A stretch of 64,000 nt of DNA from Candidatus Sphingomonas phytovorans (lineage in GTDB: Bacteria; Pseudomonadota; Alphaproteobacteria; Sphingomonadales; Sphingomonadaceae). The notes beneath the pieces are model-generated. The model was not told the origin of the DNA. It saw nothing but the letters and a program-made list of their open reading frames with translations, and did no database searches. The translations under genes and the position numbers were made by a program. This document shows positions 21,714 to 61,788 of the stretch, piece by piece (position 1 is the stretch's first letter; each line of letters opens with the position of its first letter). The DNA is taken from assembly GCA_029202385.1 (NCBI GenBank), contig CP119314.1, positions 684,501-748,500 on the forward strand, given 5' to 3'.

Positions 21714-21733
21714 GCCGGCTTCTCCCATGTCCC

Positions 21734-22765: not shown

Positions 22766-22781
22766 CTGTTCGTGCTGCCGG

Positions 22782-23498: not shown

Positions 23499-23676
23499 GC
23501 GATGGTATCCAGCCCTTTGAAGCGTGCGGTCAGACGGATTTTCGGCGCTCTCCACCGCCGGACGGGCGTTGCCGGTCATGATGGGGCAAAGACCGGCGAA
23601 GCTCAATTTCGAACGGGAAAAAGGCGGCTGCAAAACGGCGGCCTTCCTCCCCAATATTGTCGATCGACAAGACGGA

Positions 23677-26877: not shown

Positions 26878-26883
26878 AATCAC

Positions 26884-30728: not shown

Positions 30729-30795
30729 CCCACGCGGGTCGGGTCTTCCTCTCCGGCACGCGGCCCCCTCCTGCGTGTCGGGGAGGATTAAGCCC

Positions 30796-41216: not shown

Positions 41217-41843
41217 ATGCGGCGACCTTTCATCCATATTAATTTCGCCACGGAAGACGTTTGCAGCGTTCGGCAACCGCAAGGAATTTCGGGCAATATT
41301 TCCTGTGGGGACGACTGGCACAGGGTCCATATCCTGAGGGAGCGCTACGACGCCATCGCGGTGGGCGGGAAGACATGGAACATCGATCGCCCGCGCCTCA
41401 CCGTTCGTCCCGAAAAGCTGGGTCGAGAGCCGCGCAGGCAACCGAACCGGGTGATCTTCGCCGGATCGCACCCCTGCGCGATGTCGCATCCCGGAGCGCC
41501 GGCCTTCGTCATCAGCTCGCACAATCATGTCGACCCGAGCGCGGTTGCCCTGGCGATGACGGGGCATGACCTGCACGGTCCGCTGGAATCCCTTTATGAC
41601 CACGGCATCGAAAGCCTGCTGGTGGAGGGTGGCCCGACGCTGCTGCGATCATTCTTCAGCCAGGGGTTCGCCGACAGAGTGACGATCTACGTCCGCGCCG
41701 GCACGGTCGAAGCAGCTGACCGCGGCGCCCGCGATACCCTGGGCGCCCTGCCTGCCACATTGCACGCGAGCGCCTTTGGCGAAGGATTTCTGCTTGAATC
41801 CGGGGTGCCGAGAATGGGGGGCGAGATGAGGGCGAACGGATGA
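41217..41843 (+). CDS. RibD C-terminal-domain (dihydrofolate reductase-fold) protein
   Basis: 208 residues from the ATG at 41217 (GGAG six bases upstream). Its segments follow the RibD_C order: RPFIHINFATED, LRERYDAIAVGGKTWNIDRP with LTVRP (the LRxxxDAVlVGxxTxxxDxPxLxVR block), IESLLVEGGPTLLRSFF and DRVTIYVRAG. RibD_C proteins are NADPH-dependent reductases, in riboflavin synthesis or in secondary metabolism. The usual Ser-x-Asp-Gly near the N-terminus is replaced by TEDVCS, so the active site is atypical. It lacks the deaminase domain of RibD, so it is a lone reductase. It overlaps the sulfotransferase gene by 4 bp. Confidence 0.78.
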   Translation: MRRPFIHINFATEDVCSVRQPQGISGNISCGDDWHRVHILRERYDAIAVGGKTWNIDRPRLTVRPEKLGREPRRQPNRVIFAGSHPCAMSHPGAPAFVISSHNHVDPSAVALAMTGHDLHGPLESLYDHGIESLLVEGGPTLLRSFFSQGFADRVTIYVRAGTVEAADRGARDTLGALPATLHASAFGEGFLLESGVPRMGGEMRANG

Positions 41844-42607
41844 AGGACGATGAGGTCGCCCGGTTCGTCGTTTTCGCGGCGCCAAGGACGGGCAGCAACC
41901 TGTTGTGCAGCCTGCTGAACGCGCATTCCGAGATCCTGTGTCATCACGGCCTGTTCAACCCGGGCGGAATCCATTGGGCAAGGGACTGGCATGGACGGGG
42001 TGGCCTCTCCGACAGCGTTGCCGCACGCGATCACGATCCGGCGGGGTTTATCGATTCCGTCTGGGCTGCCGGTGGCGGCGCGCGGGCAGTCGGCTTCAAG
42101 ATGAACCGGGACGAGAATGACGACGCCGTCGATCTGCTGCTGCGCGATCCTTCGGTCCGAAAAATCCTGCTGAGGCGGCGCAACCGCGTGCGGACCTATG
42201 TATCCGAAGAGATCGCGCGCCTTACCGGCATCTGGGAGAGTTTCGCGGCGCGGGCCGAGGCGGCGGTCCCGGCGCTTCATGTCGAGGCGGCCGACCTGAT
42301 CCGGCACAGCGGGCTGAATGCAGCCTATTATGCGGCGCTCGAAACCGTTCTCCGTGGGACGGGCCAGACATGGCTCGACACCCAGTATGAAGCGCTCGGG
42401 GACCGGCGGGAGATGGGCAGGATAATCTCCTTTCTCGGGGTCGAGGCGCCTTTGTCGCTGCCGGCGGCGAGCCACAAGCGCGGCCCGGCCGAACTGGGCG
42501 CGGTGGTCGAGAATTTCGACGAACTGGCCGGAGCCCTGCGGGGAACCGCGCTTCTGGACGATCTCTATCGCCGGGACGCTCCCGAACTCCGTTTCCTCCG
42601 ATTCTAG
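41840..42607 (+). CDS. Sulfotransferase family protein A
   Basis: 255 residues. The PAPS 5'-phosphosulfate loop is FAAPRTGSNLLCSLLNAHSE, the 3'-phosphate motif is RKILLRRRNRVRTYVSEEIAR, and CHHGLFNPGGI is shared with the paralogue at 48704-49468. Such enzymes transfer sulfate from PAPS to hydroxyl or amino groups of carbohydrates, lipids or small molecules; the Stf0 trehalose sulfotransferase group is the nearest relative I recognise. It overlaps the RibD-like gene (ATGA) and is followed 17 bp later by a WD40 gene. No PAPS-synthesis gene is in the window. Confidence 0.83.
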   Translation: MKDDEVARFVVFAAPRTGSNLLCSLLNAHSEILCHHGLFNPGGIHWARDWHGRGGLSDSVAARDHDPAGFIDSVWAAGGGARAVGFKMNRDENDDAVDLLLRDPSVRKILLRRRNRVRTYVSEEIARLTGIWESFAARAEAAVPALHVEAADLIRHSGLNAAYYAALETVLRGTGQTWLDTQYEALGDRREMGRIISFLGVEAPLSLPAASHKRGPAELGAVVENFDELAGALRGTALLDDLYRRDAPELRFLRF

Positions 42608-42624
42608 CTGCTGGAGCGACACCG

Positions 42625-44472
42625 ATGCTCAATGCCCATCTCTCCCCGATCGTCGCCGACAGCTTCACCCGCCATCGCGGCCCGGTGACTTCTGTCGCCG
42701 CGATCCCGGGTCGCGCGGCCGTGGTTGCCGTCGCCTATGACGGGGCGGTCGCGCTGTTCGATCTCGAGGCCGCCACCGTCGATCTGCTCGGTTACCACCG
42801 GCACCTAGCCAATCATGTGACGGTCGATGAGGGAGGGAGCAGAGCAGCTTCCTCCTCCTCCGACTATGACATCTACATCTGGGACCTGACCGGTCGTAAG
42901 CTGGCCCTGGTGCTGCGCGGGCATAGCGACGACGTGGAGGGCTTCGCTTTCGTTGACGACACCACCGGCGTTTCCGCCTCGCGCGACCGGAGAATCATCG
43001 TCTGGGATCTCGTCACCGGCGCGATCCGGCGGACGATCGAGGGGCATGAGAAGGACGTGCTGTCGGTCGCCTGCCGCGAGGGACTGATCTATTCGTCGGG
43101 CGACGACATGACCCTGCGGCAATGGGATCTTGCCACGGGCGCGCTGATCCGCATCTGGGGACCGTTCGAGACCGAGACTGACACCTGCGCCATCGACATG
43201 CTGAACCACCGGGTGGTGCTTGGGTGCGACGACGGTGTCATCCGCGTGTTCGACAGCCGCGACGGTACGGCGCTGGCCTCGATCGAGGCACATGGTTCGG
43301 GCATCAAGAAGGTCGCGGTCTCCCCCGTCAACGGCGACATCCTGTCCTGCGCGTATGACCAGCGCATCACCATCTGGGATGCGTCGTCCTTTAGCCCGAA
43401 GGTAAACCTGGAGAACCATCCCTCGAAATGGGAGCGGTCGTTCGGCTGGTCGCCCGACGGCGCGGCGATCCTGGCGGGAACCTTCGATGGCACCGTCGTG
43501 CAATGGGATGCCGCGTCGGGCCTGATCGTCCGGGAGGTGGGCGGTGCCCCGGGCGACCAGGGCAATGCCTGTTTCAACGAAGCTGCCGCCGCGCCGGACG
43601 GCAGCGTCGCGCTGGTCGCTGACGACGGGATGGTTCGGCTGATCCGCCTGACTGACCGCGAAGCCAGTCTTGCCGCCCGCACTGAGCCCCCTGGCGGGCG
43701 CCGGCTGATGAACGCGGTGACGCGCGATCCGGACACTGGACGGGTCGTTGCCGGCGCGCATGACCACAAGCTGCATATTTTCGGCGCCAACCTGGAAAGC
43801 ACCGTCGAAGTGGCGCTGGGGCAGGGGCCGATCAACTCGATCCGGGTGGCGCAGTGCGAGGGCCATGAGGGTGCGCTGTTTGCCGCATGCTATAGCGGGG
43901 CGATCGTCCGCGTATCCCCTGACGGGAGGGACGTGCTGGCCCACCCGCTGCACGACGGTGCGGTGAAGGCGCTGCGCCTGCATCCTCGCGAACCGCTGGG
44001 TGTCAGTTGCAGCGCCGATGGGGGACTCCTGTCCTGGACTTTGGACGGCGAGATCCTGCATCGCTTTCCCGGGCACACCGCCATCGTTGACGATGTCGAT
44101 CTTTCCCCCACAGGCGACCGTATCGCCAGTGCATCGCGCGATTTCACGCTGAACGTCTATGATGTGGCGGACGGCCGGCTGGCCCATTCGATCGAGCTTG
44201 GTCGCCGTTCCCCCAAATCGCTCTGCTTCTGGGATGCGGATACGGTGATCGTCGGCGACTATTGGGGAGCGTTGATCAAGGCCGACCTGCGCACGGGCCG
44301 GGTCGCGCGCAGCACGATCGCCGCGAACGGCATCAGTTCGCTGTCGCGCTCCGGAGAGAGGCTGGTCGCCTCTTCCTATGACGGCGGGGTCTATCTTGTG
44401 TCGGTCGAGGATCTGTCGGTGCGCAACGTCTATCGCGCGATGACTCAGCGGGTCGGTGACGGAGGTTCATAG
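42625..44472 (+). CDS. Large WD40-repeat protein
   Basis: 615 residues consisting almost entirely of WD40 repeats, probably two seven-bladed propellers. Clear blade ends include DIYIWDL, RIIVWDLVTG, LRQWDLATGAL, IRVFDSRDG, RITIWDASS and VVQWDAASG; later blades are more degenerate (LTLNVYDVADG-like, FTLNVYD). There is no signal peptide, so it is expected in the cytoplasm. WD40 propellers are protein-interaction platforms and are uncommon as cassette genes in Alphaproteobacteria. GGAG precedes the ATG by 8 bases. It may scaffold the biosynthetic enzymes of this cluster (inference). Confidence 0.9.
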   Translation: MLNAHLSPIVADSFTRHRGPVTSVAAIPGRAAVVAVAYDGAVALFDLEAATVDLLGYHRHLANHVTVDEGGSRAASSSSDYDIYIWDLTGRKLALVLRGHSDDVEGFAFVDDTTGVSASRDRRIIVWDLVTGAIRRTIEGHEKDVLSVACREGLIYSSGDDMTLRQWDLATGALIRIWGPFETETDTCAIDMLNHRVVLGCDDGVIRVFDSRDGTALASIEAHGSGIKKVAVSPVNGDILSCAYDQRITIWDASSFSPKVNLENHPSKWERSFGWSPDGAAILAGTFDGTVVQWDAASGLIVREVGGAPGDQGNACFNEAAAAPDGSVALVADDGMVRLIRLTDREASLAARTEPPGGRRLMNAVTRDPDTGRVVAGAHDHKLHIFGANLESTVEVALGQGPINSIRVAQCEGHEGALFAACYSGAIVRVSPDGRDVLAHPLHDGAVKALRLHPREPLGVSCSADGGLLSWTLDGEILHRFPGHTAIVDDVDLSPTGDRIASASRDFTLNVYDVADGRLAHSIELGRRSPKSLCFWDADTVIVGDYWGALIKADLRTGRVARSTIAANGISSLSRSGERLVASSYDGGVYLVSVEDLSVRNVYRAMTQRVGDGGS

Positions 44473-44541
44473 CCCGACCCGGCAATTGCCCAATGTTGTT
44501 GGCGTTCCTGGTATTTTTCGATCCTTGAAGGAGCATGCGAA

Positions 44542-46143
44542 ATGACACCGAGCAAATGGCTATTGTCGGGGTGCCTGTTTCTGTTTGCAGGCGTCGCGGC
44601 CAAATCCTCAGTCCAGTCCCAGATACCCGTCGGGCCGGCACCGCTATGCGCGGTCACCAGCGCTGAATTCGCCACCTGGAAGGTGGGCAGCAATTTCGCA
44701 CCGCCGGATAGCGCGAGCTTCGATCCCTCGTCCGACTGTGCATTCTACAAATGGTCGTCGCAGATGTTCCTCTGGTTGACGACCAAGGATGTGCGCGGGA
44801 ACCTGCTGATGTTCTCGCCCAAGTTCGACAACGCGGTCGAGGACACCAGCACGGGCGCCTTCCAACTGGTCAACAGCACTGGCCTGGACGCACAGAACAA
44901 GACCAATGTGTCGTTCCGGGTCCGCGTCAACAAGCCCAAGGTGTTGCTGCTCAAGTCAGCCGGCAGCACCAATAATGTCGTAGGCGGTCCGGCGGGGGAC
45001 ACCGGGTCGACCGGCCAGGCGGGCGGCGGCGTGCTGATCGTCAATGGCAAGCCGATCCCGGTATCCGGCAAGACCGGGCTGTCGACCTATCCGGTCGTCT
45101 ATTACGCGATCCAGGAGAACGACGTCTTCACCGCGCTCAAGGAGCATTGGCGCAAGGTGCCCTATTATAATGCCGGCCCGAACAAGACGAATTTCCCGAT
45201 CACGCTCGACCAGGCGAAGGAAATCCAGAAGGCCTCGGGCACGACTCTTCCCAATCTGAGCCAGCTCGCGATCGAGGTGAAGACCGCCTGGATCGATACG
45301 GCGTATATCACGCCAGCGCAGGCCAGCAGCCTTATCCAGATCAAGTCGGATGTGCCTGCCTTCACGCAAGCACTCAACGCCAAGAACCAGCTGGTGCTGA
45401 GCTGGGACGGCACGACCATGGTCACGCGCACGCTGGCGATGGTCGGCATGCATGTGGTGGGATCAGTCAACCATCATCCGGAGATGGTCTGGGCGACGTT
45501 CGAATCGAACTTCAACAGCCCGGATGCGACCTATTCCTACCTCAACCAGAATTACGACCCGGCCACCAAGGCGTGCAAGGGTGGGACGACCTGCCTCAAC
45601 ACCGTCACTTTCAGCACGACGAGCAGCCAGCCGTCGATCTTCTACAATGGGCAGAAGGGAGCCTCCACCGCGCCTGACGTGATCGTCGAGACGGCATCGT
45701 CGGGCGACGACAGCAGCATTGTCGCGGCAGGGAAGACGTTGACGGCGACCAGCGTGGCGCGCCTCAATCCATGGGGAAGCCAGCAGCCGGCAACACCGTC
45801 ACTCAGCGATCCGGCCGTGCTCAACAACACGCTGCTCGTCTCGCTGATGAACTCGCTTCAGCCGAAGCTGGCTGCGTCGGGCGGCACCGGCAAGGCGCTG
45901 GCCAATTATTTCCTGGTCGGCGCGATCTGGAGCAACCGCATCATCCCGCCGCAGCCGGGTTACCAACTGATCGGGTCGCAGTTCGCCGCGAACACCACCA
46001 TGGAGACTTTCCAGCAAGTGCGGCCGGGCAACCCCGATCCGAACGCCACGGCGAACAATTGCTTCAGTTGCCATGGCGACTTCGATGGTACCCAGGGCAC
46101 CAGTGTCAGCCATGTCTTCCCCAACACGGTGGTGTTCCGCTGA
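44542..46143 (+). CDS. Secreted protein with single CxxCH heme motif, paralogue A
   Basis: 533 residues with a cleavable signal region (MTPSKWLLSGCLFLFAGVAA; LSGC could also be read as a lipobox, but the hydrophobic stretch continues past it). There is one c-type heme motif near the end, NNCFSCHGDF. The body is a large beta-rich domain I do not recognise. It shares landmarks in order with the product of 53397-55064: VEVKTAWID, HVVGSVNHHPEMVWATFE, ANYFLVGAIWSN and the terminal CxxCH. A periplasmic or surface electron-transfer or oxidase-like role is possible. GAAGGAG precedes the start; a strong terminator follows. Confidence 0.8.
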   Translation: MTPSKWLLSGCLFLFAGVAAKSSVQSQIPVGPAPLCAVTSAEFATWKVGSNFAPPDSASFDPSSDCAFYKWSSQMFLWLTTKDVRGNLLMFSPKFDNAVEDTSTGAFQLVNSTGLDAQNKTNVSFRVRVNKPKVLLLKSAGSTNNVVGGPAGDTGSTGQAGGGVLIVNGKPIPVSGKTGLSTYPVVYYAIQENDVFTALKEHWRKVPYYNAGPNKTNFPITLDQAKEIQKASGTTLPNLSQLAIEVKTAWIDTAYITPAQASSLIQIKSDVPAFTQALNAKNQLVLSWDGTTMVTRTLAMVGMHVVGSVNHHPEMVWATFESNFNSPDATYSYLNQNYDPATKACKGGTTCLNTVTFSTTSSQPSIFYNGQKGASTAPDVIVETASSGDDSSIVAAGKTLTATSVARLNPWGSQQPATPSLSDPAVLNNTLLVSLMNSLQPKLAASGGTGKALANYFLVGAIWSNRIIPPQPGYQLIGSQFAANTTMETFQQVRPGNPDPNATANNCFSCHGDFDGTQGTSVSHVFPNTVVFR

Positions 46144-46159
46144 TCGCCGCCTGACCTTG

Positions 46160-46188
46160 CCCCGCCGCGAACCCGGTTCGCGGCGGGG
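46160..46188 (+). terminator. Rho-independent terminator
   Basis: CCCCGCCGCGAAC and GTTCGCGGCGGGG form a perfect 13-bp stem with loop CCG, followed by TTTTATT. It lies 16 bp after the CxxCH gene and just before the stop of the convergent unknown gene. Confidence 0.9.
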
Positions 46189-46197
46189 TTTTATTCA

Positions 46198-47421
46198 TCA
46201 GAACCGGATCGAGTGCCGGTGGAAGGCGCGGGCGAGAAGCGGATCGCCGCCATGCGCGAAATAGCGATCGCGATAGTCTCGCGCGGTGATGGCGTTCACG
46301 CTGCTGTTGCTATGGTCCGACCCGTACAGAAAAATGCCCGGCGCCGCTTCGGAGAGGCGGATGATCCAGTCCTCATAGATCCGGCGTTTCTGTTCGAGAC
46401 TGTAGTGTGTCGCGCTGAAGATGGTGCAGAAGGCGTTGCTCCACCAGATCAGCGAGCCGGGTTCGTCCTGGATTCGTTCGAGCAGGGGATCGGCCTCCAG
46501 GATGTTGCAGAGCAGATAGTCGCGTCGCAAATCGCGGAACTGCCGCCAATGGTCCTCGAACCTGTCAGCGCCACCCCAGCGCGCCAGTTCTGCCGACCAC
46601 AGGCGCTCCAGCTCGGCCCATTCCATGTTGTCCGGCGAGGCGCCGGGCCACAGATAATAATGGGCGCCATTCTGCTGTTCGAACAGGCTGCGCAGGAAGC
46701 CGGGATAGTCGCGACCGTTCCATTCGGCGTCGAGCCGCCGCCTGAAATCCAGCGCCTGCGTGCTATAGTCGAAAAAGACGACGCTGCTGTCCGCGTCGAT
46801 CCCATGCGTGGCCAGGATACGGTTCGGCTTGAGGCCCGCGGCGACGCAATACAAGGTGGAGACGGGCGCGACAAAGCCCGGAGGCGGGTCGGCGACATCG
46901 TCATAGGATTCATAGTTCAGGACGAACACGCCGCGACCGGCTTTTTCCGACATGTCGTCGAGAAAGGTCAGGAATTCCGCGGCGTTGCCGAGGTCGGATC
47001 GCAGATCGATCAGATGGCCTTCGAGGTCGGGCCCGAAAGGAATCGCGATTGAGCCGGTTGGTTCGCCGTGCCGCGTCCAGGCATTGAGGTCGACCAGCAG
47101 GCAGCGACCGGGGACGCCGGCGATGATGAAATCGCGGTTCTCCGTCCATTCCTCCAGCGCGTCGAAGAAACTGCGGGCCTTGCCGCCATTGGGGCCGGCA
47201 TGTTCGGCGACGACGTGCCCATAGCCCTGCACGAGGCAGTAGCGGGCGCCGGCCTCTCTTGCCCGTAAGAGAAGCCGGCCGAGGTCGGCTTCTTCGATGA
47301 TCTCGCCGAAATAATGCCAGCGCAGCCATGAAACGGTCAGATCGCGAGCCCGACCGTTTGCCTCCTTTGTGCCTGTCGTTTCCAGTGGTGAACCGAGCAA
47401 TCCGCAGATCAGGTCGCGCAC
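46198..47421 (-). CDS. Protein of unknown function, 407 residues
   Basis: Not recognised. I place the start at the GTG at 47421, which has GGGAG six bases upstream; the frame opens at a TTG at 47436. It is soluble, with no signal peptide or helix bundle. Distinctive blocks are YCLVQGYGHVVAEHAGPNGG, FFDALEEWTENRDFIIAGVPG, CLLVDLNAWTRHG, FFDYSTQALDFRRRL, HYYLWPGASPDNMEW and LIWWSNAFCTIFSATHYS. The aromatic, Asp-rich strands near 185-260 recall nucleotide-sugar or SAM-binding folds, but no P-loop or glycine motif is clear. It lies on the opposite strand within the sulfotransferase/glycosyltransferase cluster and is divergent from a GT4 gene. Confidence 0.7.
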   Translation of the reverse strand: MRDLICGLLGSPLETTGTKEANGRARDLTVSWLRWHYFGEIIEEADLGRLLLRAREAGARYCLVQGYGHVVAEHAGPNGGKARSFFDALEEWTENRDFIIAGVPGRCLLVDLNAWTRHGEPTGSIAIPFGPDLEGHLIDLRSDLGNAAEFLTFLDDMSEKAGRGVFVLNYESYDDVADPPPGFVAPVSTLYCVAAGLKPNRILATHGIDADSSVVFFDYSTQALDFRRRLDAEWNGRDYPGFLRSLFEQQNGAHYYLWPGASPDNMEWAELERLWSAELARWGGADRFEDHWRQFRDLRRDYLLCNILEADPLLERIQDEPGSLIWWSNAFCTIFSATHYSLEQKRRIYEDWIIRLSEAAPGIFLYGSDHSNSSVNAITARDYRDRYFAHGGDPLLARAFHRHSIRF

Positions 47422-47542
47422 ACGCCTCTCCCTCAACTGTCGATGCTAAAGTGTATCCGGGGAAGGAACATAGTCGATGTCCCCATTTTGACCGCTAAAC
47501 ATGGCTTGACCGCAATGCTCGCACTGCGGCGTACTGGAGGGA

Positions 47543-48697
47543 ATGAGCACCAGAATACTCCTGTTGCAGGATGCCGTGTATTTTCCGTCCTATGGCGGAG
47601 GCAACAAGGCCAATCGGCTTTTGCTGACAGCGCTGGCAGCGCGGGGCTTCGAATGCCATGCGGTGTCCCGGATGCCTCGCGAGCGCCGGATTCTCGCTGG
47701 CAGATTCAGCGCGGAAGCGCTGACCGAGCGCGGTATCGCCGTCGAGCGTCACGCGGCGGGAAGCATGTCCTATCGCCACGAGGGCGTCAGGGTCGAGGCG
47801 CTGGATCTCGACGATCCCGAAGCTGCGGCGCGGATCGGCGCGGTGATCCGCGATACGCGACCCGACTGGATCCTCGTTTCCGACGACCGTCCTGCGATAC
47901 TGCTCGATATCGCGCTGGCCTATGCGCCCGACCGGGTGGTTGCGCTGGTTCATACGCACTTCCATCTGCCGTTCGGTCCGGAGGCTGAGGCCGGGAATGA
48001 AGAACAGCACGCCCGGTTAAGACGCGTCCGGAGCATCGTCGCGGTGAGCGAGCATAGCCGCGCCTATCTTCGGGAATATGGCGGGCTGGATTCTGTCCTG
48101 CTGCGCTTTCCGGTATTCGGAGACGGGCCGTTCGAACCCCCGGACCGGGCCGCCGCCGGCTCAGTGACGATGATCAACCCTTGCCTGCTCAAGGGACTGC
48201 CGATCTTCCTCGACCTGGCGAGACTGTTCCCCGAAACGCCTTTCGCCGCGGTGCCGACCTGGGGCGTGGACGAGACGGTGCTGCGCGACCTGTCGCTGTT
48301 ACCGAACATGACGGTGCTCGAACCCGCCGACGATGTCGGCATCGTCCTTCGCGACGCGCGTATCCTCGTGGCGCCGTCACTGATTCCGGAAACCTTCGGC
48401 TATGTGGCGATTGATGCCATGCTGCGCGGTATCCCGGTTCTTGCCGGCAATCTCGGCGGCCAGCCCGAAGCGAAGCTCGGTATCGACTTCACCCTGCCGG
48501 TCGAACCTGCCCAGCGAACCGGGGCAGGCCATGTCGCGCCGCCCCAGGATATCGCGCCCTGGCAGGCTGCTCTGGGCACGCTGTTGTCCGATGAAGAGGC
48601 GTATCGGTGCTGCTCGCTCGCGTCCCGCGCGGCTGCGCTCAGCTTCCTGCCGCAGACCGATGCCGGACATTTCTCCCGGTATCTCGCCTCTCTTTAG
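47543..48697 (+). CDS. Glycosyltransferase, GT4-like
   Basis: 384 residues with a GT-B fold. The N-terminal Rossmann half has YFPSYGGGNKANRLLLTALAARGFE. The C-terminal half has the donor-site region RILVAPSLIPETFGYVAIDAM followed by LRGIPVLAGNLGGQPE, in which the two acidic/aromatic positions match the GT4 E-x7-E area only loosely (the second Glu is Asp). It lacks membrane helices, as expected of a cytoplasmic or peripheral enzyme. Sugar donor and acceptor are unknown. GGAGG lies just before the ATG. It is convergent, 6 bp apart, with sulfotransferase B. Confidence 0.83.
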   Translation: MSTRILLLQDAVYFPSYGGGNKANRLLLTALAARGFECHAVSRMPRERRILAGRFSAEALTERGIAVERHAAGSMSYRHEGVRVEALDLDDPEAAARIGAVIRDTRPDWILVSDDRPAILLDIALAYAPDRVVALVHTHFHLPFGPEAEAGNEEQHARLRRVRSIVAVSEHSRAYLREYGGLDSVLLRFPVFGDGPFEPPDRAAAGSVTMINPCLLKGLPIFLDLARLFPETPFAAVPTWGVDETVLRDLSLLPNMTVLEPADDVGIVLRDARILVAPSLIPETFGYVAIDAMLRGIPVLAGNLGGQPEAKLGIDFTLPVEPAQRTGAGHVAPPQDIAPWQAALGTLLSDEEAYRCCSLASRAAALSFLPQTDAGHFSRYLASL

Positions 48698-48703
48698 TCT
48701 CGC

Positions 48704-49468
48704 TCAGCGCCCCAGCTCATGGAGTTCGGCCTCGAGGTCACTGCCCCGCAATTCTTCGCTCAGCGTGTCGAAATTCGAAATCGTTTCGCGCAGGGCGACC
48801 GGAGTCAGTTTCCAGGTCTGGCCGTTCGGCTGGACCGGTCGGCCGGCGGCGCCGAGAAAGGCGAGGGCAGGCTCGATCCCCCGTGGGGAAAACAGATCCT
48901 CATACCAGAGAAGGACGTGATCCTGCGCAGTCTCGTTCAGGCCGCGCTCGGTCTCGGCATAGAAGCGCTCATGCAGCGCGATATTCTCTGCTAGGGCCGC
49001 GCGGTCGACATGGACCCGGGGGCGAGGTGCTGGTGCGCCGCGATCGTCATAGACCACCCATTCCCCGGTCTGCCGGGCCAACAGCAGGGACACGAAGCTT
49101 TTGACCCGGTTGCGCCGCTTCAGGAGGATCTTCCGCACCCCGTGATCGGGCAGCACCGCCCGATAGGCAGCCTCATGCTGCCACAGGCACATTTTGAAGC
49201 CGACCGCTGCCCGGCCGAGATTGGTGCGCCAGACGCGATCGAGGAATTCCACCGGGTTGCTTTCCCGCTCCTCCATGCTGCCCAGCCGGAAATCGCTGTC
49301 CTGAAGGTGTCGCGCCACACCGATCACGTGCGGATTGAAGATTTCATGGTGACAAAGAATGTCGGGATGAGAGTTCAGCACCGTGCACAGGAAATTACTG
49401 CCGGTTCTGGTTGCATTGAGAATGATGAATCGAACCGGAATGGGGAGTTCTGTCACTGTCCGATCCAT
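48704..49468 (-). CDS. Sulfotransferase family protein B
   Basis: 254 residues from the ATG at 49468 (GGAG nine bases upstream). It is closely related to sulfotransferase A: NATRTGSNFLCTVLNSHPD aligns with APRTGSNLLCSLLNAHSE, DILCHHEIFNP with EILCHHGLFNP, VGFKM with VGFKM, and RKILLKRRNRVKSFVSLLLAR with RKILLRRRNRVRTYVSEEIAR. These are the PAPS-binding loops. Two related but distinct enzymes suggest sulfation at two positions or on two intermediates. It is divergent from the methyltransferase gene across 84 bp. Confidence 0.83.
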   Translation of the reverse strand: MDRTVTELPIPVRFIILNATRTGSNFLCTVLNSHPDILCHHEIFNPHVIGVARHLQDSDFRLGSMEERESNPVEFLDRVWRTNLGRAAVGFKMCLWQHEAAYRAVLPDHGVRKILLKRRNRVKSFVSLLLARQTGEWVVYDDRGAPAPRPRVHVDRAALAENIALHERFYAETERGLNETAQDHVLLWYEDLFSPRGIEPALAFLGAAGRPVQPNGQTWKLTPVALRETISNFDTLSEELRGSDLEAELHELGR

Positions 49469-49522
49469 TGAAGATTTCTCCGGCGGGCCGTAATTCGTTT
49501 GAACGGGAATGTAGCGCGGCTC

Positions 49523-49536
49523 TTGTCGACCGACAA
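49523..49536. promoter_or_regulatory. TTGTCG-N2-CGACAA inverted repeat
   Basis: A perfect 6-bp inverted repeat with a 2-bp centre (AC) lies in the 84-bp divergent gap between sulfotransferase B and the methyltransferase. The same arms with centre AT occur at 23657-23670, also between genes. A shared DNA-binding protein is possible; chance cannot be excluded. Confidence 0.3.
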
Positions 49537-49552
49537 AGGATCTTCGTTCATC

Positions 49553-50233
49553 ATGACGACTGACGAACGTTATGCGGTAGCGGAGGTATGGGACAGGCGG
49601 CATAGCGCGATCCTCGCCGTGGGAGATCCGGACCGGTCGAGCCAGTGGCTCGAACCATTCCTGCCGCTGCTGGAAAGCCATGGCTGCCGCGACGTGCTCG
49701 ATCTCGGGTGCGGCACGGGATATGACGCACTCGCGCTGGCGCGCCGCGGATATCGCGTCCAGGGCTTCGATTATGCCCAGGTCGCCATTGACGAGGCGAT
49801 CCGGCTCGCACAGGCGGAGGGCCTGACGGTCGATTTCCGCCAGGGCGATATCGGACTGCCCTTGCCCTGCAAGGACGGCAGTTTCGATGCGGTGATCAGC
49901 AACCTCGTCCTGCATTCTTTCGCCGATGCAGCGCTTCGGAGCATCGTCGGCGAGGTCGATCGCTGCCTCAGGCCGGGGGGGCTGTTTCTCTTCCACGCCA
50001 ATTCAACGGACGATCTCGAACGACGGCTTGCCGTGCAACCGCCCGAGCGCCAGCTGGGGCCGCGATCCTATGTCCTGGCCGGTGGCCAGACCATGCATTT
50101 CTTCAGTCGCGACTATTGCGAGACCCTGCTCGCCGACTGGCAGTCGATCGGGATCGAGGCGGTCACGCGGCTCGATCCGGAAGGCCAGCCGGTGAAGAGC
50201 GTCTGGCGGGTGGCCGTTCGGAAGCGCGGCTGA
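49553..50233 (+). CDS. Class I SAM-dependent methyltransferase
   Basis: 226 residues from the ATG at 49553. The frame opens at 49499 but the sequence before MTTDERYAVAEVW is unlike the family; the ribosome binding site AAAGGA is rather far, so the start is not certain. Motif I is VLDLGCGTGYDALALARRGY, motif II/III FRQGDIGLPLPCKDGSFDAV, and LRPGGLFLFHANS is the post-motif strand. The acceptor atom and substrate are unknown; this subfamily usually methylates small molecules. It begins a three-gene run with the ATP-grasp fusion (8-bp gap) and GINT1-like genes. Confidence 0.88.
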   Translation: MTTDERYAVAEVWDRRHSAILAVGDPDRSSQWLEPFLPLLESHGCRDVLDLGCGTGYDALALARRGYRVQGFDYAQVAIDEAIRLAQAEGLTVDFRQGDIGLPLPCKDGSFDAVISNLVLHSFADAALRSIVGEVDRCLRPGGLFLFHANSTDDLERRLAVQPPERQLGPRSYVLAGGQTMHFFSRDYCETLLADWQSIGIEAVTRLDPEGQPVKSVWRVAVRKRG

Positions 50234-50241
50234 TTCCGCCC

Positions 50242-52374
50242 ATGACTTGTCGCGTGGTGGCCATCGTCGATCCCTATGACGCAGGTTCGATGCTCGCGCC
50301 GGCTTTTGCCGAGCATGGCGTCGAGGCGCTGATGGTCCGGAGCACGTCGGCGATACCGAACGCGGAGGCTGCTTCCTTCGACCCGGCGCCGTTCAGCAAT
50401 GTGCTGCCCTGGCATGAGGATATCGCGCAGACCGTGGCCGCCCTGCGGGACCTTCAGGTCGATCATGTGATCGCCGGGTCGGAGCGGGGCGTGATGCTGG
50501 CCGATCGGCTGAGCGAGGCGCTGGGCCTGGCCGGCAACGGCACGCGTCTGAGCGAGGCGCGCCGCGACAAGGCGCGCATGATCGAGGAGGTCGGTGCGCG
50601 CGGTATCCGGGTGCCGCGGCAGATCCAGTCGGGCAGGCTGCATGATATCATGGCCTGGATCGACGAAGGTGGCGGATGGCCGGTCGTGCTCAAGCCGCGC
50701 TGGTCGAAGGGATCGGAGGGCGTGCGCCTGTGTACATCGCGAGAGGAGGTGTCGAGGGCGTTCCATGCCGTTCATGACCATGTCGACCAGATGGGCTTTC
50801 GCAACGACACCGTGCTGGCGCAGGAATTCCTGGCAGGGCGGGAATTTGTCATCGACACCGTCAGCCTTGACGGGCGCCATCGCCTCGCGGCCCTGTGGAT
50901 TTATGGCAAGCCGGTACCGGGCTTTGAATCGATCGGCGTGCTGTCCACCAAGGAATTGCTGCCGTCGGAGGGGCCGCTGGCCGAGATGTTGTTCGCCTTC
51001 GCGACGCGGGTTCTGGACGCGCTGGAGATTCGTCACGGGGCGGGGCATTGCGAGGTGATCGTCGACGCCGAAGGGCCGGCGCTGGTGGAAATCGGCGCGC
51101 GGCTGCATGGTGGTCCACCGGCTCATCTGATGAGTCGCGCCGCCGTCGGGACGAGCCAGCTCGACCTGCTGGTGCAATCCTGTCTCGATCCGTCCGGGTT
51201 TCTCGATAGTGTTTCCAGCCGCTATCGCCTGACCGGCGATGCGATGATGGCGTTGTTGCGGGACGCCGCGTTGAAGGGGGAGATCGAGACCCTGCCTTCC
51301 GCCCGATCCGTCGTCTGGAACGAGCGGGGAGGGGACCCTCCGCCAGCGGTGGCGGGCCTGGCTACGCTGATCCACGCGGAGCGGCAGGTGGTCGCGGCGG
51401 ATCTGGAGATCGTTACCGGCGCGCTCTCCTGCGAGATTCTCGACCGGCGCGACGCGGTCGAGGATATCGCGCCTGAATGGCGTGCATTGCTTGAGCGCTC
51501 GCGCTGCAATCGCGCCTTTGGTGGCCCGACCTGGTATCTGGCCGCGCTTGATGCCTGGCCGGACCTGTCGCCGCTGGTGATCGTTGCGCGGCGTGGCGGG
51601 CGTCTCGCCGGGATATTCCCGCTGACCCGACACGCTCAGGACGAAACGGTGCGCTTCGCCACGGTGTTGAGCGACTATAACGATCTGGTCGTGGCCGAGG
51701 GCGATGTGGCGGCCGCACGACGACTGATGACATTTGCGCGGCGCCGCTTTCCGCACCTCGATCTCACCTGCATCCGTGCTGATTCGAGCTGCGCCACGGC
51801 TGAAGCCCATGCGCCGGTACTGGTGGAGAAGAAGTTTATCTGCCCGACCGCCGATCTCTCTGTCGACTATGATGGCTGGTTCGCCGCGCGAAGCCCGGGC
51901 TTCCAGCGAGAGCTGGCACTGCTCACCCGCCGCGCGGCGCGCAACGGCGTTCGTGCCTGCCGGCTCGATCCGGTGCGCGATGCGGCGATCGATCCCGGCG
52001 CGTTCTTTCTCGAGATGCAGCAGGCGCGCTTTGGCGAACGCAGCCTGTTCCTGCGCGATCCGGCTGCCCGCGCTTTCGTCATCGCCGCGCTGCCAGCGCT
52101 GTGGCGCGAGGGTACAGCGCCGCTGTTCGGCCTTTGGGCCGGGGAGCAACTGATCGGATTGAACATCTGCATGCTGGGTGCCGACAGCCTGGGCAACTGG
52201 AATGCGGGTTTTCTCTCGGCTTTCGCCACTTTCTCTCCCGGCATGCTGATGGCCGATGCCGCGGTGCGCGAGGCGTGTGCGATGGGACTGGCGGAATTCG
52301 ACTATCTCCGCGGAACCGAGACTTACAAGCTTCGGTGGTGCTCCGGGCGTCGCGAGATCGGGCGGCTGGAATGA
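50242..52374 (+). CDS. ATP-grasp ligase fused to FemAB/BioF2-like acyltransferase
   Basis: 710 residues with two enzymes in one chain. Residues about 1-390 are an ATP-grasp ligase of the carnosine-synthase/BL00235 type: SEARRDKARMIEEVG, GGWPVVLKPRWSKGSEGVR (nucleotide Lys), VLAQEFLAGREFVIDTVS, and CEVIVDAEGPALVEIGARL (Mg-binding acids). Residues about 400-710 form a double-GNAT domain of the CelD/FemAB-like type (AFGGPTWYLAALDAWPDLSP, LFGLWAGEQLIGLNI, and EFDYLRGTETYKLRWC near the end). The first half would form an amide bond to an amino acid; the second would transfer an aminoacyl or acyl group. The stop overlaps the next start (ATGA). Confidence 0.85.
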   Translation: MTCRVVAIVDPYDAGSMLAPAFAEHGVEALMVRSTSAIPNAEAASFDPAPFSNVLPWHEDIAQTVAALRDLQVDHVIAGSERGVMLADRLSEALGLAGNGTRLSEARRDKARMIEEVGARGIRVPRQIQSGRLHDIMAWIDEGGGWPVVLKPRWSKGSEGVRLCTSREEVSRAFHAVHDHVDQMGFRNDTVLAQEFLAGREFVIDTVSLDGRHRLAALWIYGKPVPGFESIGVLSTKELLPSEGPLAEMLFAFATRVLDALEIRHGAGHCEVIVDAEGPALVEIGARLHGGPPAHLMSRAAVGTSQLDLLVQSCLDPSGFLDSVSSRYRLTGDAMMALLRDAALKGEIETLPSARSVVWNERGGDPPPAVAGLATLIHAERQVVAADLEIVTGALSCEILDRRDAVEDIAPEWRALLERSRCNRAFGGPTWYLAALDAWPDLSPLVIVARRGGRLAGIFPLTRHAQDETVRFATVLSDYNDLVVAEGDVAAARRLMTFARRRFPHLDLTCIRADSSCATAEAHAPVLVEKKFICPTADLSVDYDGWFAARSPGFQRELALLTRRAARNGVRACRLDPVRDAAIDPGAFFLEMQQARFGERSLFLRDPAARAFVIAALPALWREGTAPLFGLWAGEQLIGLNICMLGADSLGNWNAGFLSAFATFSPGMLMADAAVREACAMGLAEFDYLRGTETYKLRWCSGRREIGRLE

Positions 52375-53234
52375 CCGGGCCGCTTCCGGACGATCCATGG
52401 TCGATCGGCCTTTATGCCGGCCCCGACCCGCTCCATCTGGCCGCACCGCGGGGCCGCGCCAACCCGATCATGACGCGCGAGCAGGTGACTGATATTCCGG
52501 CGGCTTTCGTCGCCGACCCGTTCCTGCTGCGGCACAAGGGAGAGTGGCACCTCTTCTTCGAAGTGCTTCATCACGAACGCCGGCTGGGCGAGATCGGGTG
52601 GGCCAGCAGCCCCGATGCAGTCGCCTGGTCGTACCAGGGTATCGTCCTGCGCGAGCCTTTCCATCTATCCTACCCCGGCGTGTTCGAGCATGGGGGCGAG
52701 GTGTTCATGGTGCCGGAGACGCTCGATGCGGGCGCCGTTCGCCTCTACCGCGCCGACCCCTTTCCGATACGCTGGGTGCCGGTCGCCGACCTGCTCCAGG
52801 GCAGCCTCGCCGATCCGACGCCTTTCCGGTTCGAGGGACGCTGGTGGATGTTCGTGTGCCCGGCGCCGTCCAGCCATGACGCATTGTCGCTCTTCTTCGC
52901 CGATACGTTTGCCGGCCCCTGGCAGGAACATCCGGCGAGCCCGCTGATCGTCGGCGACAGGAGCAGGGCGCGGCCGGGCGGACGGGTCGTGTGCCGGGAC
53001 GGACGCCTCTATCGCTTCTCCCAGGATTGCGGGCCGCGCTACGGAAGCGGGGTGCGTGCTTTCGAGATCATCCGGCTGACGCGCGATGACTATGCGGAAC
53101 GGGAATGTGCTGAAAGCCCCATCCTCGGTCCGTCAGGCACGGGATGGAACGGCAAGGGCATGCACCATGTCGATGCCTGGCAGATCGCGCCCGATCATTG
53201 GATCGCGGCGGTTGACGGTATCAGGATCAAATGA
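52371..53234 (+). CDS. GINT1-like (glucosamine inositolphosphorylceramide transferase N-domain) protein
   Basis: 287 residues forming a five-bladed beta-propeller like GH43/GH32 enzymes. The landmarks are those of the GINT1 N-terminal family: AAFVADPFLLRHKGEWHLFF, HLSYPGVFEHGGEVFMVPET, SLADPTPFRFEGRWWMFV, RARPGGRVVCRDGRLYRFSQ and WNGKGMHHVDAWQI. In plants the full protein glycosylates inositolphosphorylceramide, with catalysis in another domain. Bacterial stand-alone copies sit in surface-glycan loci and their role is unproven. Sphingomonads make sphingolipids, so a glycolipid target is conceivable. Its start overlaps the ATP-grasp fusion by 4 bp. Confidence 0.75.
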   Translation: MTGPLPDDPWSIGLYAGPDPLHLAAPRGRANPIMTREQVTDIPAAFVADPFLLRHKGEWHLFFEVLHHERRLGEIGWASSPDAVAWSYQGIVLREPFHLSYPGVFEHGGEVFMVPETLDAGAVRLYRADPFPIRWVPVADLLQGSLADPTPFRFEGRWWMFVCPAPSSHDALSLFFADTFAGPWQEHPASPLIVGDRSRARPGGRVVCRDGRLYRFSQDCGPRYGSGVRAFEIIRLTRDDYAERECAESPILGPSGTGWNGKGMHHVDAWQIAPDHWIAAVDGIRIK

Positions 53235-53396
53235 TTTCTGTTCCGGTTACCATTGCGTAAGAGTTTCCTGTCTGGATGCAGCCATTCTGGCCTCTTCTTG
53301 GATTGATGGCATTTTGATGTGGCCATAGATTAAACAGGATCAATTTACCGTCATAATTTAAGGTGTTTGTCGATCTCTGCCAAAAAGGGGGCCGTT

Positions 53397-55064
53397 ATGA
53401 AGACCATTGCTTTGTTGCTTTGTGCCGGATCGGTGGCCGCCGCGGCTGCCGTAGCCCAGACATCCTCGACATCTTCAGCGCCGCCTCCACCACCCTTCGG
53501 GCCCTCAGTCACCGCGGGCCAGACGTTGCAGACGTCCGACATGACCAATGCCAATCCGCTGATCCCCGCGGATATCTATCGTACCAGCGCCGTCGCGCAC
53601 CAGGATCTGGCGACCTTCGCCTGGCTTGAATTCATCTCGGCGGTGGCGCCGAATGCGGCGGGGAGCCGGGGGGTGCCGGGCGGCAGCTTCGCCACTTCCG
53701 GCAGCGGTGGCACCGGGCCTTTGGTCTGGGAAACCTACCAGCACCGCACCGAGCTTTTCCCGTGCAATGTGAACGGGACGTCGTCGGCTCCCACCCCGCC
53801 CCAGCCCTGGGGGGCTTCCCCCAAATATGTGACGACCGTCACGAATTCCAATCCGCAGCTGTGCAGCACCATCACGCTGCCGGGCGGCGGGACACTGCCG
53901 TATAATAATCTGGATGAGGCCAACCAGATTGGACAGAATACCCTGTTCTTCCCGACCACGCCGGGAAACCCCCAACCGGCGACCGATGCGCAGGTGCTGT
54001 TCGAGGCCAAGGTCAACCAGTATGAATCCAATTATGTGAACCAGAATTATGCGAGCTTCACCCCGCTATATTCTCCCTTCCGCCTCCCTGCCGGGACCGT
54101 CAACCTGCCAACGACGACGGTCGAGGTGAAAGCCGCCTGGCGTCCGCTGTCCTCGATCCCGTCGAGTCAGCGCTATCGCTATCATGTTTCGAACGTCCTC
54201 ACTTACGGCGGCAGCGATTCCGCTCCGGTGCCGAGAGTGGTGCCGTATGCGCTGATCGCCCTGCATATCATCCACAAGACGCCCAACTATCCTGCATTCA
54301 TCTTCGCGACCTTCGAACAGGTCGACGATTTCAAGAACCAGGTCACGGGACAGCCAACGGGCGTCTATTATGTGCCAGCCTATGGATCGGTCGGATATAC
54401 GACCCCCACAAGCACCACCTTCCCGCCGAGCGGCAAGACGGCGCCCAATCCCAATATCAACTTCAGCACCTCGGCCCCCAAGGCGGTGCCCTATGGAACG
54501 AAGGGCGTGGCCTTGCCGCTCGGGAACGTCAGCAGCATTGCCGGCGCCAAGGTGCTGAAAAATGGAGCGGTTGCTATTCCCGTCACGTCGCCGGTGCCGG
54601 CCGTGCCGGAGATCACCGCGGTGAACAACCGGGCGCTGACCGCGATGAAGGGCATTCCGGGCTTCAACCAGAATTTCATCTGGCAATATTACAAATTGAC
54701 CGGCGTCCAGGCGATTCCGACCAATGATGAAACCACCAGGGATTTCTACCTGGCCAATATCGTCGTCGAAAGCAGCCAGCCGGGCATCCAGCTCTTCCGG
54801 GGTTTCCCGCCGATCACCAACGGCGTGCTGACCAATATCCGGAACCAGGTCAACGTCATCGACTATCACAATGGCCTCGGCACCCTGACGTCCAGCGGCG
54901 GTTGCCAGGGTTGCCATGGCATCGCCCAGACCCAGAACGGCTTCGATTTCAGCTTCCTGTTCTTCGGTGTGGCGGGCGGCGGATTCTCGCCCGAGACGGC
55001 GGGCCTGCCCAGCCCGCAGCTCGCGGCGGCGCGGCTTGCGAACAAGAAATACTTCACGAAATAG
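53397..55064 (+). CDS. Secreted protein with single CxxCH heme motif, paralogue B
   Basis: 555 residues from the ATG at 53397 (AGGGGG five bases upstream). The signal peptide is MKTIALLLCAGSVAAAAAVAQ, followed by a Pro/Ser-rich linker. The C-terminal heme motif is GGCQGCHGIAQ. Shared landmarks with paralogue A, in order, are VEVKAAWRPL, LIALHIIHKTPNYPAFIFATFE, NNRALTAMKGIPGFNQNFIWQYYKL and CxxCH. HQDLATFAWLEFISAVAP plus PLVWETYQHRTELF correspond to the aromatic N-terminal block. An AT-rich 162-bp gap upstream probably carries its own promoter. Periplasmic location is predicted; function is unknown. Confidence 0.8.
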   Translation: MKTIALLLCAGSVAAAAAVAQTSSTSSAPPPPPFGPSVTAGQTLQTSDMTNANPLIPADIYRTSAVAHQDLATFAWLEFISAVAPNAAGSRGVPGGSFATSGSGGTGPLVWETYQHRTELFPCNVNGTSSAPTPPQPWGASPKYVTTVTNSNPQLCSTITLPGGGTLPYNNLDEANQIGQNTLFFPTTPGNPQPATDAQVLFEAKVNQYESNYVNQNYASFTPLYSPFRLPAGTVNLPTTTVEVKAAWRPLSSIPSSQRYRYHVSNVLTYGGSDSAPVPRVVPYALIALHIIHKTPNYPAFIFATFEQVDDFKNQVTGQPTGVYYVPAYGSVGYTTPTSTTFPPSGKTAPNPNINFSTSAPKAVPYGTKGVALPLGNVSSIAGAKVLKNGAVAIPVTSPVPAVPEITAVNNRALTAMKGIPGFNQNFIWQYYKLTGVQAIPTNDETTRDFYLANIVVESSQPGIQLFRGFPPITNGVLTNIRNQVNVIDYHNGLGTLTSSGGCQGCHGIAQTQNGFDFSFLFFGVAGGGFSPETAGLPSPQLAAARLANKKYFTK

Positions 55065-57619: not shown

Positions 57620-57652
57620 GTAGAACTCCCGGTTACGGACGCGCATTGGCGA

Positions 57653-58693
57653 TCACGAGGATTTGAGGATCGTCATACGGAGCTGGCGCCTGAGGTCGGC
57701 GCGCTGGTCGGGGCGCATCTCCCCGAGTTGGCCGCGCAAGGCAGGCGGAATATGGGCGACGGCATCACCGCTATCGTCGAAGACATGGGCCTCGAACATC
57801 GCGCGCCAGTATCGACGTTCGCCCGGCGGCAGTGCCTTGATCGCGAGCAGGGCGCTCAGAAAGGCGTCCTGGGCATGACCGAGCCCGCGCGGAACATCGC
57901 CCCACCAGTAATTGACCATCGCGTTCCAGGGAGAGCGCGAGGTGACGTGGTGCCACCAGTATCGCGGCATCAGCAGCGCGTCGCCGGGGTCGAGATGCGC
58001 GACCTGCGCCGCATCGAGCGCTTCGCGAAAACGCGGAAACCTGTCGAAATCGGGTGCCTCCGGATCGACCAGGGAGAGCGGGGGCGGATTGTCCAGGGGG
58101 CCGACATAGAGATTGGCCACCTGTTCCGGCGGGAATAGCAGGAAGCGGCGCTGGCCGGCTATCACGCAGGCCAGGTTGTGGTCGCGATCATTGTGGATCT
58201 GGGTCTTCACTGGTCCGCCGAGCCACAGCCGGGGTTCGGCGGCCGGCGGGACCAGCGGCATTGGGTTGTCGCGCGCGAAGTCCGGGAACTGCGTGCCGAG
58301 CGGCAGCATCTGGATCGCGATATAGGGCGCGCCGGGTGTGGTCGTCGCACGCTCGATCCGGTCGAGCGTTTCGCCCAGCGGCCGCTGCCGTTTGGTGAAG
58401 CTGAACTCGCGCAGGTCAGCGGCATAGCCGAACCGCCCGCTGCTGCCCGGCGACGCTTCCATTACCGGTACCGGCGCGCCGCGATCCATCGCCCGGAAAT
58501 AGGCGCCGAGCGCGGCCTGCGACCGACGTCCGGCGGCCAGCGCCGGCCAATGCTCCACCACCCCCTTCACGATCACTGGCATGCCGGCGGCGAGCAGCGC
58601 AGCGATATCGGCCGAAGACCGAGCGCTTGCAGTGGGGACTGGCGACAGCGCGTCCAGGCGATCGGAACGGGCGGCGACCGAGACGGCGGTCAC
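57653..58693 (-). CDS. Cupin_8/JmjC-like protein (locus 2)
   Basis: 346 residues, equivalent to the protein at 21734-22765. The fold's iron site is visible as TQIHNDRDHNLACVIAGQ (H-x-D) and MPRYWWHHVTSRSPW (distal His), with GQRRFLLFPPEQVANLYVGPL between. The N-terminal SADIAALLAAGMPVIVKGVVEHWPAL is the usual entry helix and strand. A 2-oxoglutarate/Fe(II) hydroxylase-like function is expected. Its start overlaps the degenerate halogenase stop by 4 bp, and it precedes the GH31 gene. Confidence 0.86.
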   Translation of the reverse strand: MTAVSVAARSDRLDALSPVPTASARSSADIAALLAAGMPVIVKGVVEHWPALAAGRRSQAALGAYFRAMDRGAPVPVMEASPGSSGRFGYAADLREFSFTKRQRPLGETLDRIERATTTPGAPYIAIQMLPLGTQFPDFARDNPMPLVPPAAEPRLWLGGPVKTQIHNDRDHNLACVIAGQRRFLLFPPEQVANLYVGPLDNPPPLSLVDPEAPDFDRFPRFREALDAAQVAHLDPGDALLMPRYWWHHVTSRSPWNAMVNYWWGDVPRGLGHAQDAFLSALLAIKALPPGERRYWRAMFEAHVFDDSGDAVAHIPPALRGQLGEMRPDQRADLRRQLRMTILKSS

Positions 58694-61721: not shown

Positions 61722-61743
61722 CAGACTACCCTCTCACAAGGGC

Positions 61744-61772
61744 TGCGCTGCCGTCCATCGGACGGCAGCGCA
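61744..61772 (-). other. Intercistronic stem-loop
   Basis: TGCGCTGCCGTCC and GGACGGCAGCGCA form a perfect 13-bp stem with a 3-nt loop between the TonB receptor stop and the halogenase start. No T-run follows on the minus strand. This fits an RNA-stabilising or partial-attenuation element that would give the receptor more mRNA than the downstream enzymes. Confidence 0.7.
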
Positions 61773-61788
61773 ACTAGGGGGTGCCTCA

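What the first reader, a model, noticed from the sequence alone, without database searches (positions are those of the whole stretch)
41217..55064. Candidate undescribed biosynthetic/surface-modification locus
Seen: eleven genes with an unusual mix. Two related PAPS sulfotransferases, a lone RibD-C reductase-like protein, a 615-residue WD40 propeller, a GT4 enzyme, a SAM methyltransferase, an ATP-grasp/FemAB fusion, a GINT1-like propeller, an unrecognised 407-residue protein, and two paralogous secreted CxxCH proteins. Known: these families respectively sulfate, glycosylate, methylate and aminoacylate sugars, lipids or small molecules. Inference: together they could make and export a sulfated, amino-acid-decorated glycolipid or glycan, or a metabolite, with the heme proteins acting outside the cell. 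I know no described pathway with this set.
Basis: partly seen in the sequence, partly recalled or inferred. Interest (0 to 1): 0.75.

Follow-up and report, generated by a model that had tools for sequence, protein, structure and literature searches.

The report
Sulfated pyrimidine-type metabolite gene cluster
These eleven genes belong to a gene cassette, kept in the same order in distantly related bacteria, that probably turns a riboflavin precursor made from GTP into a small molecule decorated with sugar, amino acid and sulfate, for which no description was found.

Summary
In detail: eleven real genes lie at 41217-55064. They form one cassette. Gene order and strands are kept in Sphingomonas sp. 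QA11, two Caulobacter and three Niveispirillum genomes, at 41-78% protein identity outside Sphingomonas. It is rare: 1 of 201 sampled genomes of the genus, the window's own.

The other loci explain the odd genes. In both Caulobacter and all three Niveispirillum loci a GTP cyclohydrolase II gene stands divergently beside the RibD_C gene; in Niveispirillum this copy is in 3 of 3 genomes with the cassette and 0 of 8 without. The RibD_C protein resembles reductases acting on that enzyme's product. The WD40 protein groups with ToxC-type WD40 proteins of toxoflavin-like clusters; the WD-40 protein PsdE is needed for pseudoiodinine (PMC9911603, passages). ToxD, the usual partner, was not found in any of the seven loci.

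Best reading: a GTP-derived, riboflavin-branch pyrimidine or azapteridine-like metabolite carrying sugar, amino acid and sulfate, with exported c-type haem proteins. Every reaction and the product are inferred. It shares a core with azapteridine clusters but is a new variant.

The parts
41217..41843 (+). RibD_C reductase-like protein (first possible start 41184)
   Evidence: Pfam RibD_C 73.9 bits; profile of 7 relatives best matches diaminopyrimidinone phosphate reductases 6p8c 5e-20 and 2azn 1.9e-17
41840..42607 (+). Stf1, NodH/Stf0-like sulfotransferase, core
   Evidence: profile match to NodH 9vki_A 3.4e-26; in 7 of 7 loci
42625..44472 (+). WD40 protein, 615 aa, ToxC-type, core
   Evidence: in 7 of 7 loci
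44542..46143 (+). CxxCH1, predicted exported protein with one C-terminal CxxCH, core
   Evidence: in 7 of 7 loci, in two pieces in L057
46198..47421 (-). P407, unnamed family, predicted GT-A-like half plus class I methyltransferase-like half, core
   Evidence: 306 homologues without Pfam in the listed rows; model pLDDT 92.0; fold comparison
47543..48697 (+). GT4 glycosyltransferase, core
   Evidence: Pfam; in 7 of 7 loci, in two pieces in L057
48704..49468 (-). Stf2, second NodH-like sulfotransferase (Sphingomonas and Caulobacter loci only)
49553..50233 (+). SAM-dependent methyltransferase (Sphingomonas loci only)
   Evidence: Pfam; absent in 5 of 7 loci
50242..52374 (+). ATP-grasp (L-amino-acid-ligase type) fused to Acetyltransf_6/FemAB-like domain, core
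52371..53234 (+). GINT1_N-type five-bladed propeller, sugar-active family, core
   Evidence: Pfam 190.7 bits; distant match to beta-fructofuranosidase 6num 3.7e-6; ATP-grasp+GINT1 fusion P0227
53397..55064 (+). CxxCH2, predicted exported protein with one CxxCH (Sphingomonas and Caulobacter loci only)

Best explanation
A patchily distributed biosynthetic cassette that makes a GTP-derived, riboflavin-branch small molecule. (1) GTP cyclohydrolase II opens GTP to 2,5-diamino-6-ribosylaminopyrimidinone 5'-phosphate; its gene is in the cassette in Caulobacter and Niveispirillum, and in the window strain the housekeeping enzyme would supply it. (2) The lone RibD_C protein reduces ribosyl to ribityl. 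(3) The ToxC-type WD40 protein acts on this pyrimidine, most likely oxidatively. (4) The L-amino-acid-ligase-type ATP-grasp/FemAB fusion adds an amino acid or acyl group. (5) GT4, GINT1 and perhaps the GT-A-like half of P407 add sugar. (6) The NodH-like enzymes sulfate it. The CxxCH proteins act on it, or exchange electrons with it, outside the cytoplasm. Shown: gene content, conserved order, linkage of GTP cyclohydrolase II, family relationships. Inferred: every reaction, their order, the product, its export and what it is for.
For: Seven collinear loci. A stand-alone GTP cyclohydrolase II divergent from RibD_C in 5 of 7 loci; in Niveispirillum that copy is in 3 of 3 genomes with and 0 of 8 without the cassette. 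RibD_C profile best matches reductases of the GTP cyclohydrolase II product. WD40: three tiers in a single-sequence comparison, tree, 70 near-invariant columns shared with ToxC-type proteins, best non-cassette plasmid relatives sit beside GTP cyclohydrolase II. In pseudoiodinine synthesis GTP cyclohydrolase, WD-40 protein, SUMF protein and RibD work together (PMC9911603, passages). ATP-grasp fused elsewhere to GINT1 or to GT4. PAPS supply: APS kinase in the genome.
Against: No GTP cyclohydrolase II beside the cassette in the two Sphingomonas loci. WD40 identity to ToxC-type proteins is only 28-35%; the sister relation has 96/73 support and the tree program warns of long branches; the Streptomyces cluster WD40, at 129 bits, does not beat generic WD40 proteins, best 151. 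Cassette GTP cyclohydrolase II is nearer to proteobacterial housekeeping copies (53-60%) than to those of the tox-like clusters (43-45%). No ToxD and no deaminase half of RibD. The Bacillus cluster's methyltransferase has no match in the window at E<=1e-3. No exporter among the eleven genes.
Confidence: 0.62

Rival explanations
1. Surface-glycan or glycolipid modification: GT4, GINT1, P407 and the sulfotransferases build and sulfate a cell-surface sugar, aminoacylated by the fusion protein; RibD_C and WD40 play side roles.
For: Sulfotransferase profile matches 'LPS sulfotransferase NodH'; GINT1 relatives lie in polysaccharide clusters of Nostoc and Pseudanabaena.
Against: No flippase, polymerase or ligase family among the eleven genes; leaves the linked extra GTP cyclohydrolase II, RibD_C and ToxC-type WD40 unexplained.
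Confidence: 0.15
2. A modified flavin-, deazaflavin- or pterin-like redox carrier, made from the same riboflavin precursor and used outside the cell with the CxxCH proteins.
For: GTP cyclohydrolase II plus RibD_C start; conserved exported CxxCH proteins.
Against: ToxC-type WD40 proteins are known to me only from azapteridine-type clusters; no lumazine- or riboflavin-synthase-like family among the eleven genes.
Confidence: 0.15
3. Two neighbouring pathways travelling together (a GTP-derived metabolite and a separate sulfated glycan), or chance neighbours.
For: Genes lie on both strands; Stf2, the methyltransferase and CxxCH2 come and go.
Against: Order and strands are kept in seven loci on chromosomes and on a Niveispirillum plasmid; ATP-grasp fusions to GINT1 and GT4 elsewhere.
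Confidence: 0.06

Closest known systems
Pseudoiodinine cluster psdABCDEFG, Pseudomonas mosselii 923 (PMC9911603, passages read)
   Same: GTP cyclohydrolase, WD-40 repeat protein, RibD, methyltransferase(s).
   Different: Has a SUMF protein (PsdC) and full RibD; no sulfotransferase, ATP-grasp, glycosyltransferase or CxxCH protein in the gene list seen.
Toxoflavin operon toxABCDE, Burkholderia glumae (PMC10708333 and PMC9040811, passages read; sequences not fetched)
   Same: GTP-derived; ToxC is listed as COG2319 (WD40 by my recall), ToxA is a SAM methyltransferase.
   Different: ToxD (COG1262, the SUMF/FGE group by my recall) has no counterpart here; no sulfation or glycosylation genes in the text seen.
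Tox-like plasmid clusters of Halobacillus litoralis and Bacillus arachidis and Streptomyces sp. BHT-5-2
   Same: GTP cyclohydrolase II next to a ToxC-type WD40 gene; Bacillus also has three ATP-grasp genes and a methyltransferase; a glycosyltransferase-like frame in Streptomyces (read by eye).
   Different: All three carry a SUMF1/FGE gene; Bacillus and Streptomyces a full RibD; none has the P407, GINT1, Stf or CxxCH genes at E<=1e-3.
L-amino acid ligases BL00235 (3vot), BacD, RizA, and dapdiamide A synthase DdaF
   Different: Fused to an Acetyltransf_6 domain; DdaF model 173.4 bits against cut-off 840.
NodH/LPS and Stf0 sulfotransferases
   Same: Profile match to 9vki_A over 216 of 250 positions.
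   Different: Below Pfam Stf0 and Sulfotransfer_3 cut-offs for the window's two proteins.

Membership tests
Azapteridine (toxoflavin/pseudoiodinine-type) cluster | GTP cyclohydrolase II gene in the locus | tested here: not met
   Absent from the window and from QA11's held stretch; present in 5 of the 7 loci
Azapteridine (toxoflavin/pseudoiodinine-type) cluster | ToxC/PsdE-type WD40 protein | tested here: met
   the published ToxC and PsdE sequences themselves were not in the comparison
Azapteridine (toxoflavin/pseudoiodinine-type) cluster | ToxD/PsdC (SUMF1/FGE-type) protein in the locus | tested here: not met
   No tblastn match in seven loci; positive control L085 matched at 112 and 288 bits. 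Whole genomes not searched
Azapteridine (toxoflavin/pseudoiodinine-type) cluster | Two-domain RibD (deaminase plus reductase) | tested here: not met
   Only the RibD_C half; Bacillus RibD aligns from residue 145 on
Azapteridine (toxoflavin/pseudoiodinine-type) cluster | Product with the pyrimidotriazine or pyrazolotriazine ring | not testable with these tools
   needs chemistry
Riboflavin-type diaminopyrimidinone phosphate reductase | RibD_C fold family and best kinship to that reductase | tested here: met
   Pfam cut-off passed; 6p8c 5e-20, 2azn 1.9e-17 are the best PDB matches of the profile; activity not tested
NodH/Stf0-type PAPS sulfotransferase | Curated Pfam cut-off (PF09037 or PF13469) | tested here: not met
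   18.2 against 22 and 18.9 against 27 for Stf1
NodH/Stf0-type PAPS sulfotransferase | Profile kinship to a solved member | tested here: met
   9vki_A 3.4e-26
L-amino acid ligase (ATP-grasp) | Sequence and fold of the ATP-grasp ligases | tested here: met
   ligation not tested
Wzx/Wzy-type surface polysaccharide locus | Flippase, polymerase or O-antigen ligase in the locus | tested here: not met
   None among the Pfam results of the eleven genes

The most novel reading that the evidence does not exclude
A ToxC-type pathway that works without ToxD: the WD40 protein alone oxidises a GTP-derived diaminopyrimidine (possibly forming an N-N bond), an ATP-grasp/FemAB enzyme takes over amino-acid attachment, and the product is an exported, glycosylated, sulfated azapteridine-like redox compound that works with dedicated exported c-type haem proteins.
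Probability: 0.3. Interest if true: 0.87.

Novelty: new variant of a known kind. Interest (0 to 1): 0.7.

Why it matters
How the WD-40 protein and the SUMF protein make 1,6-didesmethyltoxoflavin is called unclear in PMC9911603 (passage). A natural cassette that keeps a ToxC-type WD40 protein and the GTP cyclohydrolase II/RibD_C start, but in whose loci no ToxD was found, separates the two roles and makes the WD40 step testable on its own. It would also add sulfation, glycosylation and amino-acid ligation to a compound branch for which my searches found no such case, give a first context for the unnamed P407 family (306 homologues) and for this CxxCH family, and offer a query for genome mining.

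Tried and rejected
Chance neighbourhood: rejected by seven collinear loci.

Other ATP-grasp relatives in the class sample: six of the fourteen genomes with a match were opened (L048-L053); no other cassette gene in the 20 kb held of each. The fusion, not the ATP-grasp family, marks the cassette.

Known riboswitches or other RNA families: none at Rfam gathering cut-offs in the window or in L108, L111, L025, L026, L056.

Empty site: the upstream dehydrogenase gene is found at 61-69% protein identity in three relatives (L102-L104), but no other tested window gene lies in the 20 kb held, so no junction could be read.

That equal length means the same contig is an inference. By eye, WD40 relatives P0245, P0251 and P0277 share contig lengths with rows.

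Bias: alignment A3 mixed cassette and tox types, so the ranking favours both; I lean on the single-sequence comparison and the plasmid tblastn (25 of 42 records seen). Labels 'cassette-type' and 'ToxC-type' for database proteins rest on similarity; context was seen only for the loci named. For the tree I used 18 of 20 cassette-type rows (left out Niv698, P0277), 22 of 28 ToxC-type rows (left out P0241, which is the Halobacillus protein again, and P0242, P0243, P0274, P0275, P0281), and chose 12 of the rest.
Full report
Checking the observation. The 407-residue protein has no Pfam match but 306 database homologues, of which 120 are listed. The window lies in a 5.45-Mb genome held as one contig. 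Its near relative Sphingomonas sp. QA11 carries the same eleven genes at 89-99% identity with the same neighbours on both sides.

Is it one unit? The ATP-grasp/FemAB fusion found one relative covering 80% or more of it among 189 plasmid records, in Niveispirillum cyanobacteriorum. Around it stand eight of the eleven genes in the same order and on the same strands: RibD_C, Stf1, WD40, CxxCH1, P407 on the other strand, GT4, the fusion and GINT1. Two further Niveispirillum genomes repeat this. Both hold ten of the eleven genes in the same order, lacking the methyltransferase.

Counts. A full-length fusion is in 1 of 249 genomes of the family (14 others have partial matches), 1 of 201 of the genus, 3 of 82 of the Niveispirillum order, 2 of 385 of the class (12 others have partial matches) and 2 of 239 of the Caulobacter family. 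P407 is in 2 of 385 of the class and 2 of 398 of the phylum. The samples overlap, and each includes the genome at its centre or the window's own. In public protein clusters, 18 contig lengths are shared between relatives of P407 and of the ATP-grasp protein (partial tables), including a Gemmatimonadaceae genome where the two protein numbers are five apart. So the cassette is real, rare and patchy, which suggests horizontal transfer. Its GC content, 63.6%, is close to that of the rest of the window, about 65%.

What the other loci reveal. In all three Niveispirillum and both Caulobacter loci the gene divergent from RibD_C is a stand-alone GTP cyclohydrolase II. Over 11 Niveispirillum genomes this copy is in 3 of 3 with the cassette and 0 of 8 without; two of the three have three copies in all, the third (93% complete) has two, and the eight others have two each. 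The Caulobacter and Niveispirillum cassette copies are 72% identical, against 53-55% to Niveispirillum housekeeping copies. The window genome has two hits elsewhere: one has the intact cysteine motif, the other lacks it. I take the first to be the housekeeping enzyme. The RibD_C protein, whose best solved relatives are reductases acting on the GTP cyclohydrolase II product, thus has a natural substrate in view.

The WD40 protein. In plasmids its best non-cassette relatives, 239 and 217 bits against at most 146 for the other records among the 25 shown, are WD40 proteins next to GTP cyclohydrolase II and a SUMF1/FGE protein in Halobacillus litoralis and Bacillus arachidis. Among 130 WD40 proteins there are three tiers: 20 cassette-type rows (itself included) at 564-1227 bits, 28 ToxC-type rows at 205-311, and the rest at 151 or less, the Streptomyces cluster protein (129) among them. 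Two of the middle tier are named 'toxoflavin biosynthesis protein ToxC' by their source. In the tree the 18 cassette proteins are one clade (100/100), sister to 22 Firmicutes ToxC-type proteins (96/73); with the Streptomyces protein and two more they form a group at 100/100 apart from nine other WD40 proteins, with a warning about long branches. Seventy columns are identical in at least 39 of 40 cassette and Firmicutes proteins, and 50 of these also in all three distant ones. In print, ToxC is listed as COG2319 and ToxD as COG1262 (PMC9040811, passage). Pseudoiodinine needs a WD-40 protein PsdE and a SUMF protein PsdC to reach 1,6-didesmethyltoxoflavin, by an unclear mechanism (PMC9911603, passages). 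ToxC is mentioned as a new oxidase family proposed to help N-N bond formation (PMC12154649, passage, outline and half the reference list). The paper cited there is not held and I have not seen it. Passages of PMC10708333 gave the operon and the GTP origin of toxoflavin; passages of PMC5414355 were seen and not used.

Reading. The best-supported account is a pathway from GTP through a ribitylaminopyrimidine, acted on by the WD40 protein, then decorated with amino acid, sugar and sulfate, with exported haem proteins outside the cytoplasm. Gene content, order, linkage and kinship are shown; all reactions are inferred. It shares a core with toxoflavin/pseudoiodinine clusters and may work like them, but I do not file it as a member, because defining genes were tested and not met. 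A surface-glycan role (0.15) and a secreted redox carrier (0.15) remain possible. Ten paper searches found no description of this cassette; most subscription papers are not in that library.

Noticed in passing
55154-63948 (-): Directly downstream: GH31, Cupin_8, two tryptophan-halogenase-type flavoproteins and a TonB-dependent receptor; also downstream of the cassette in QA11. Looks like a separate uptake/degradation operon.
   Followed up: partly
20226-26883 (-): A further tryptophan-halogenase-type gene and a 1068-aa TonB-dependent receptor.
   Followed up: no
29637-35787 (+): DUF11 protein and a 1670-aa repeat protein with DUF11 and SdrD_B-like stretches, perhaps a large surface protein.
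   Followed up: no
16978-19272 (-): Patatin-like phospholipase with a DUF3376 region.
   Followed up: no
L033:7866-11097: In Xanthomonas sacchari a CxxCH-family relative stands beside a LodA/GoxA CTQ-dependent oxidase gene, a hint at an oxidase-linked role for this haem-motif family.
   Followed up: no
L086:3565-16022: Bacillus arachidis plasmid: tox-like set (FGE, GTP cyclohydrolase II, WD40, RibD, methyltransferase) with three ATP-grasp genes and an MFS transporter.
   Followed up: partly
L108:1545-4434 (-): In Caulobacter a response regulator and a histidine kinase stand next to the cassette's GTP cyclohydrolase II.
   Followed up: no
L057:5967-7116 and L057:8571-10135: In one fragmented Niveispirillum genome GT4 and CxxCH1 each match in two pieces: frameshifts or assembly errors; described only.
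   Followed up: no
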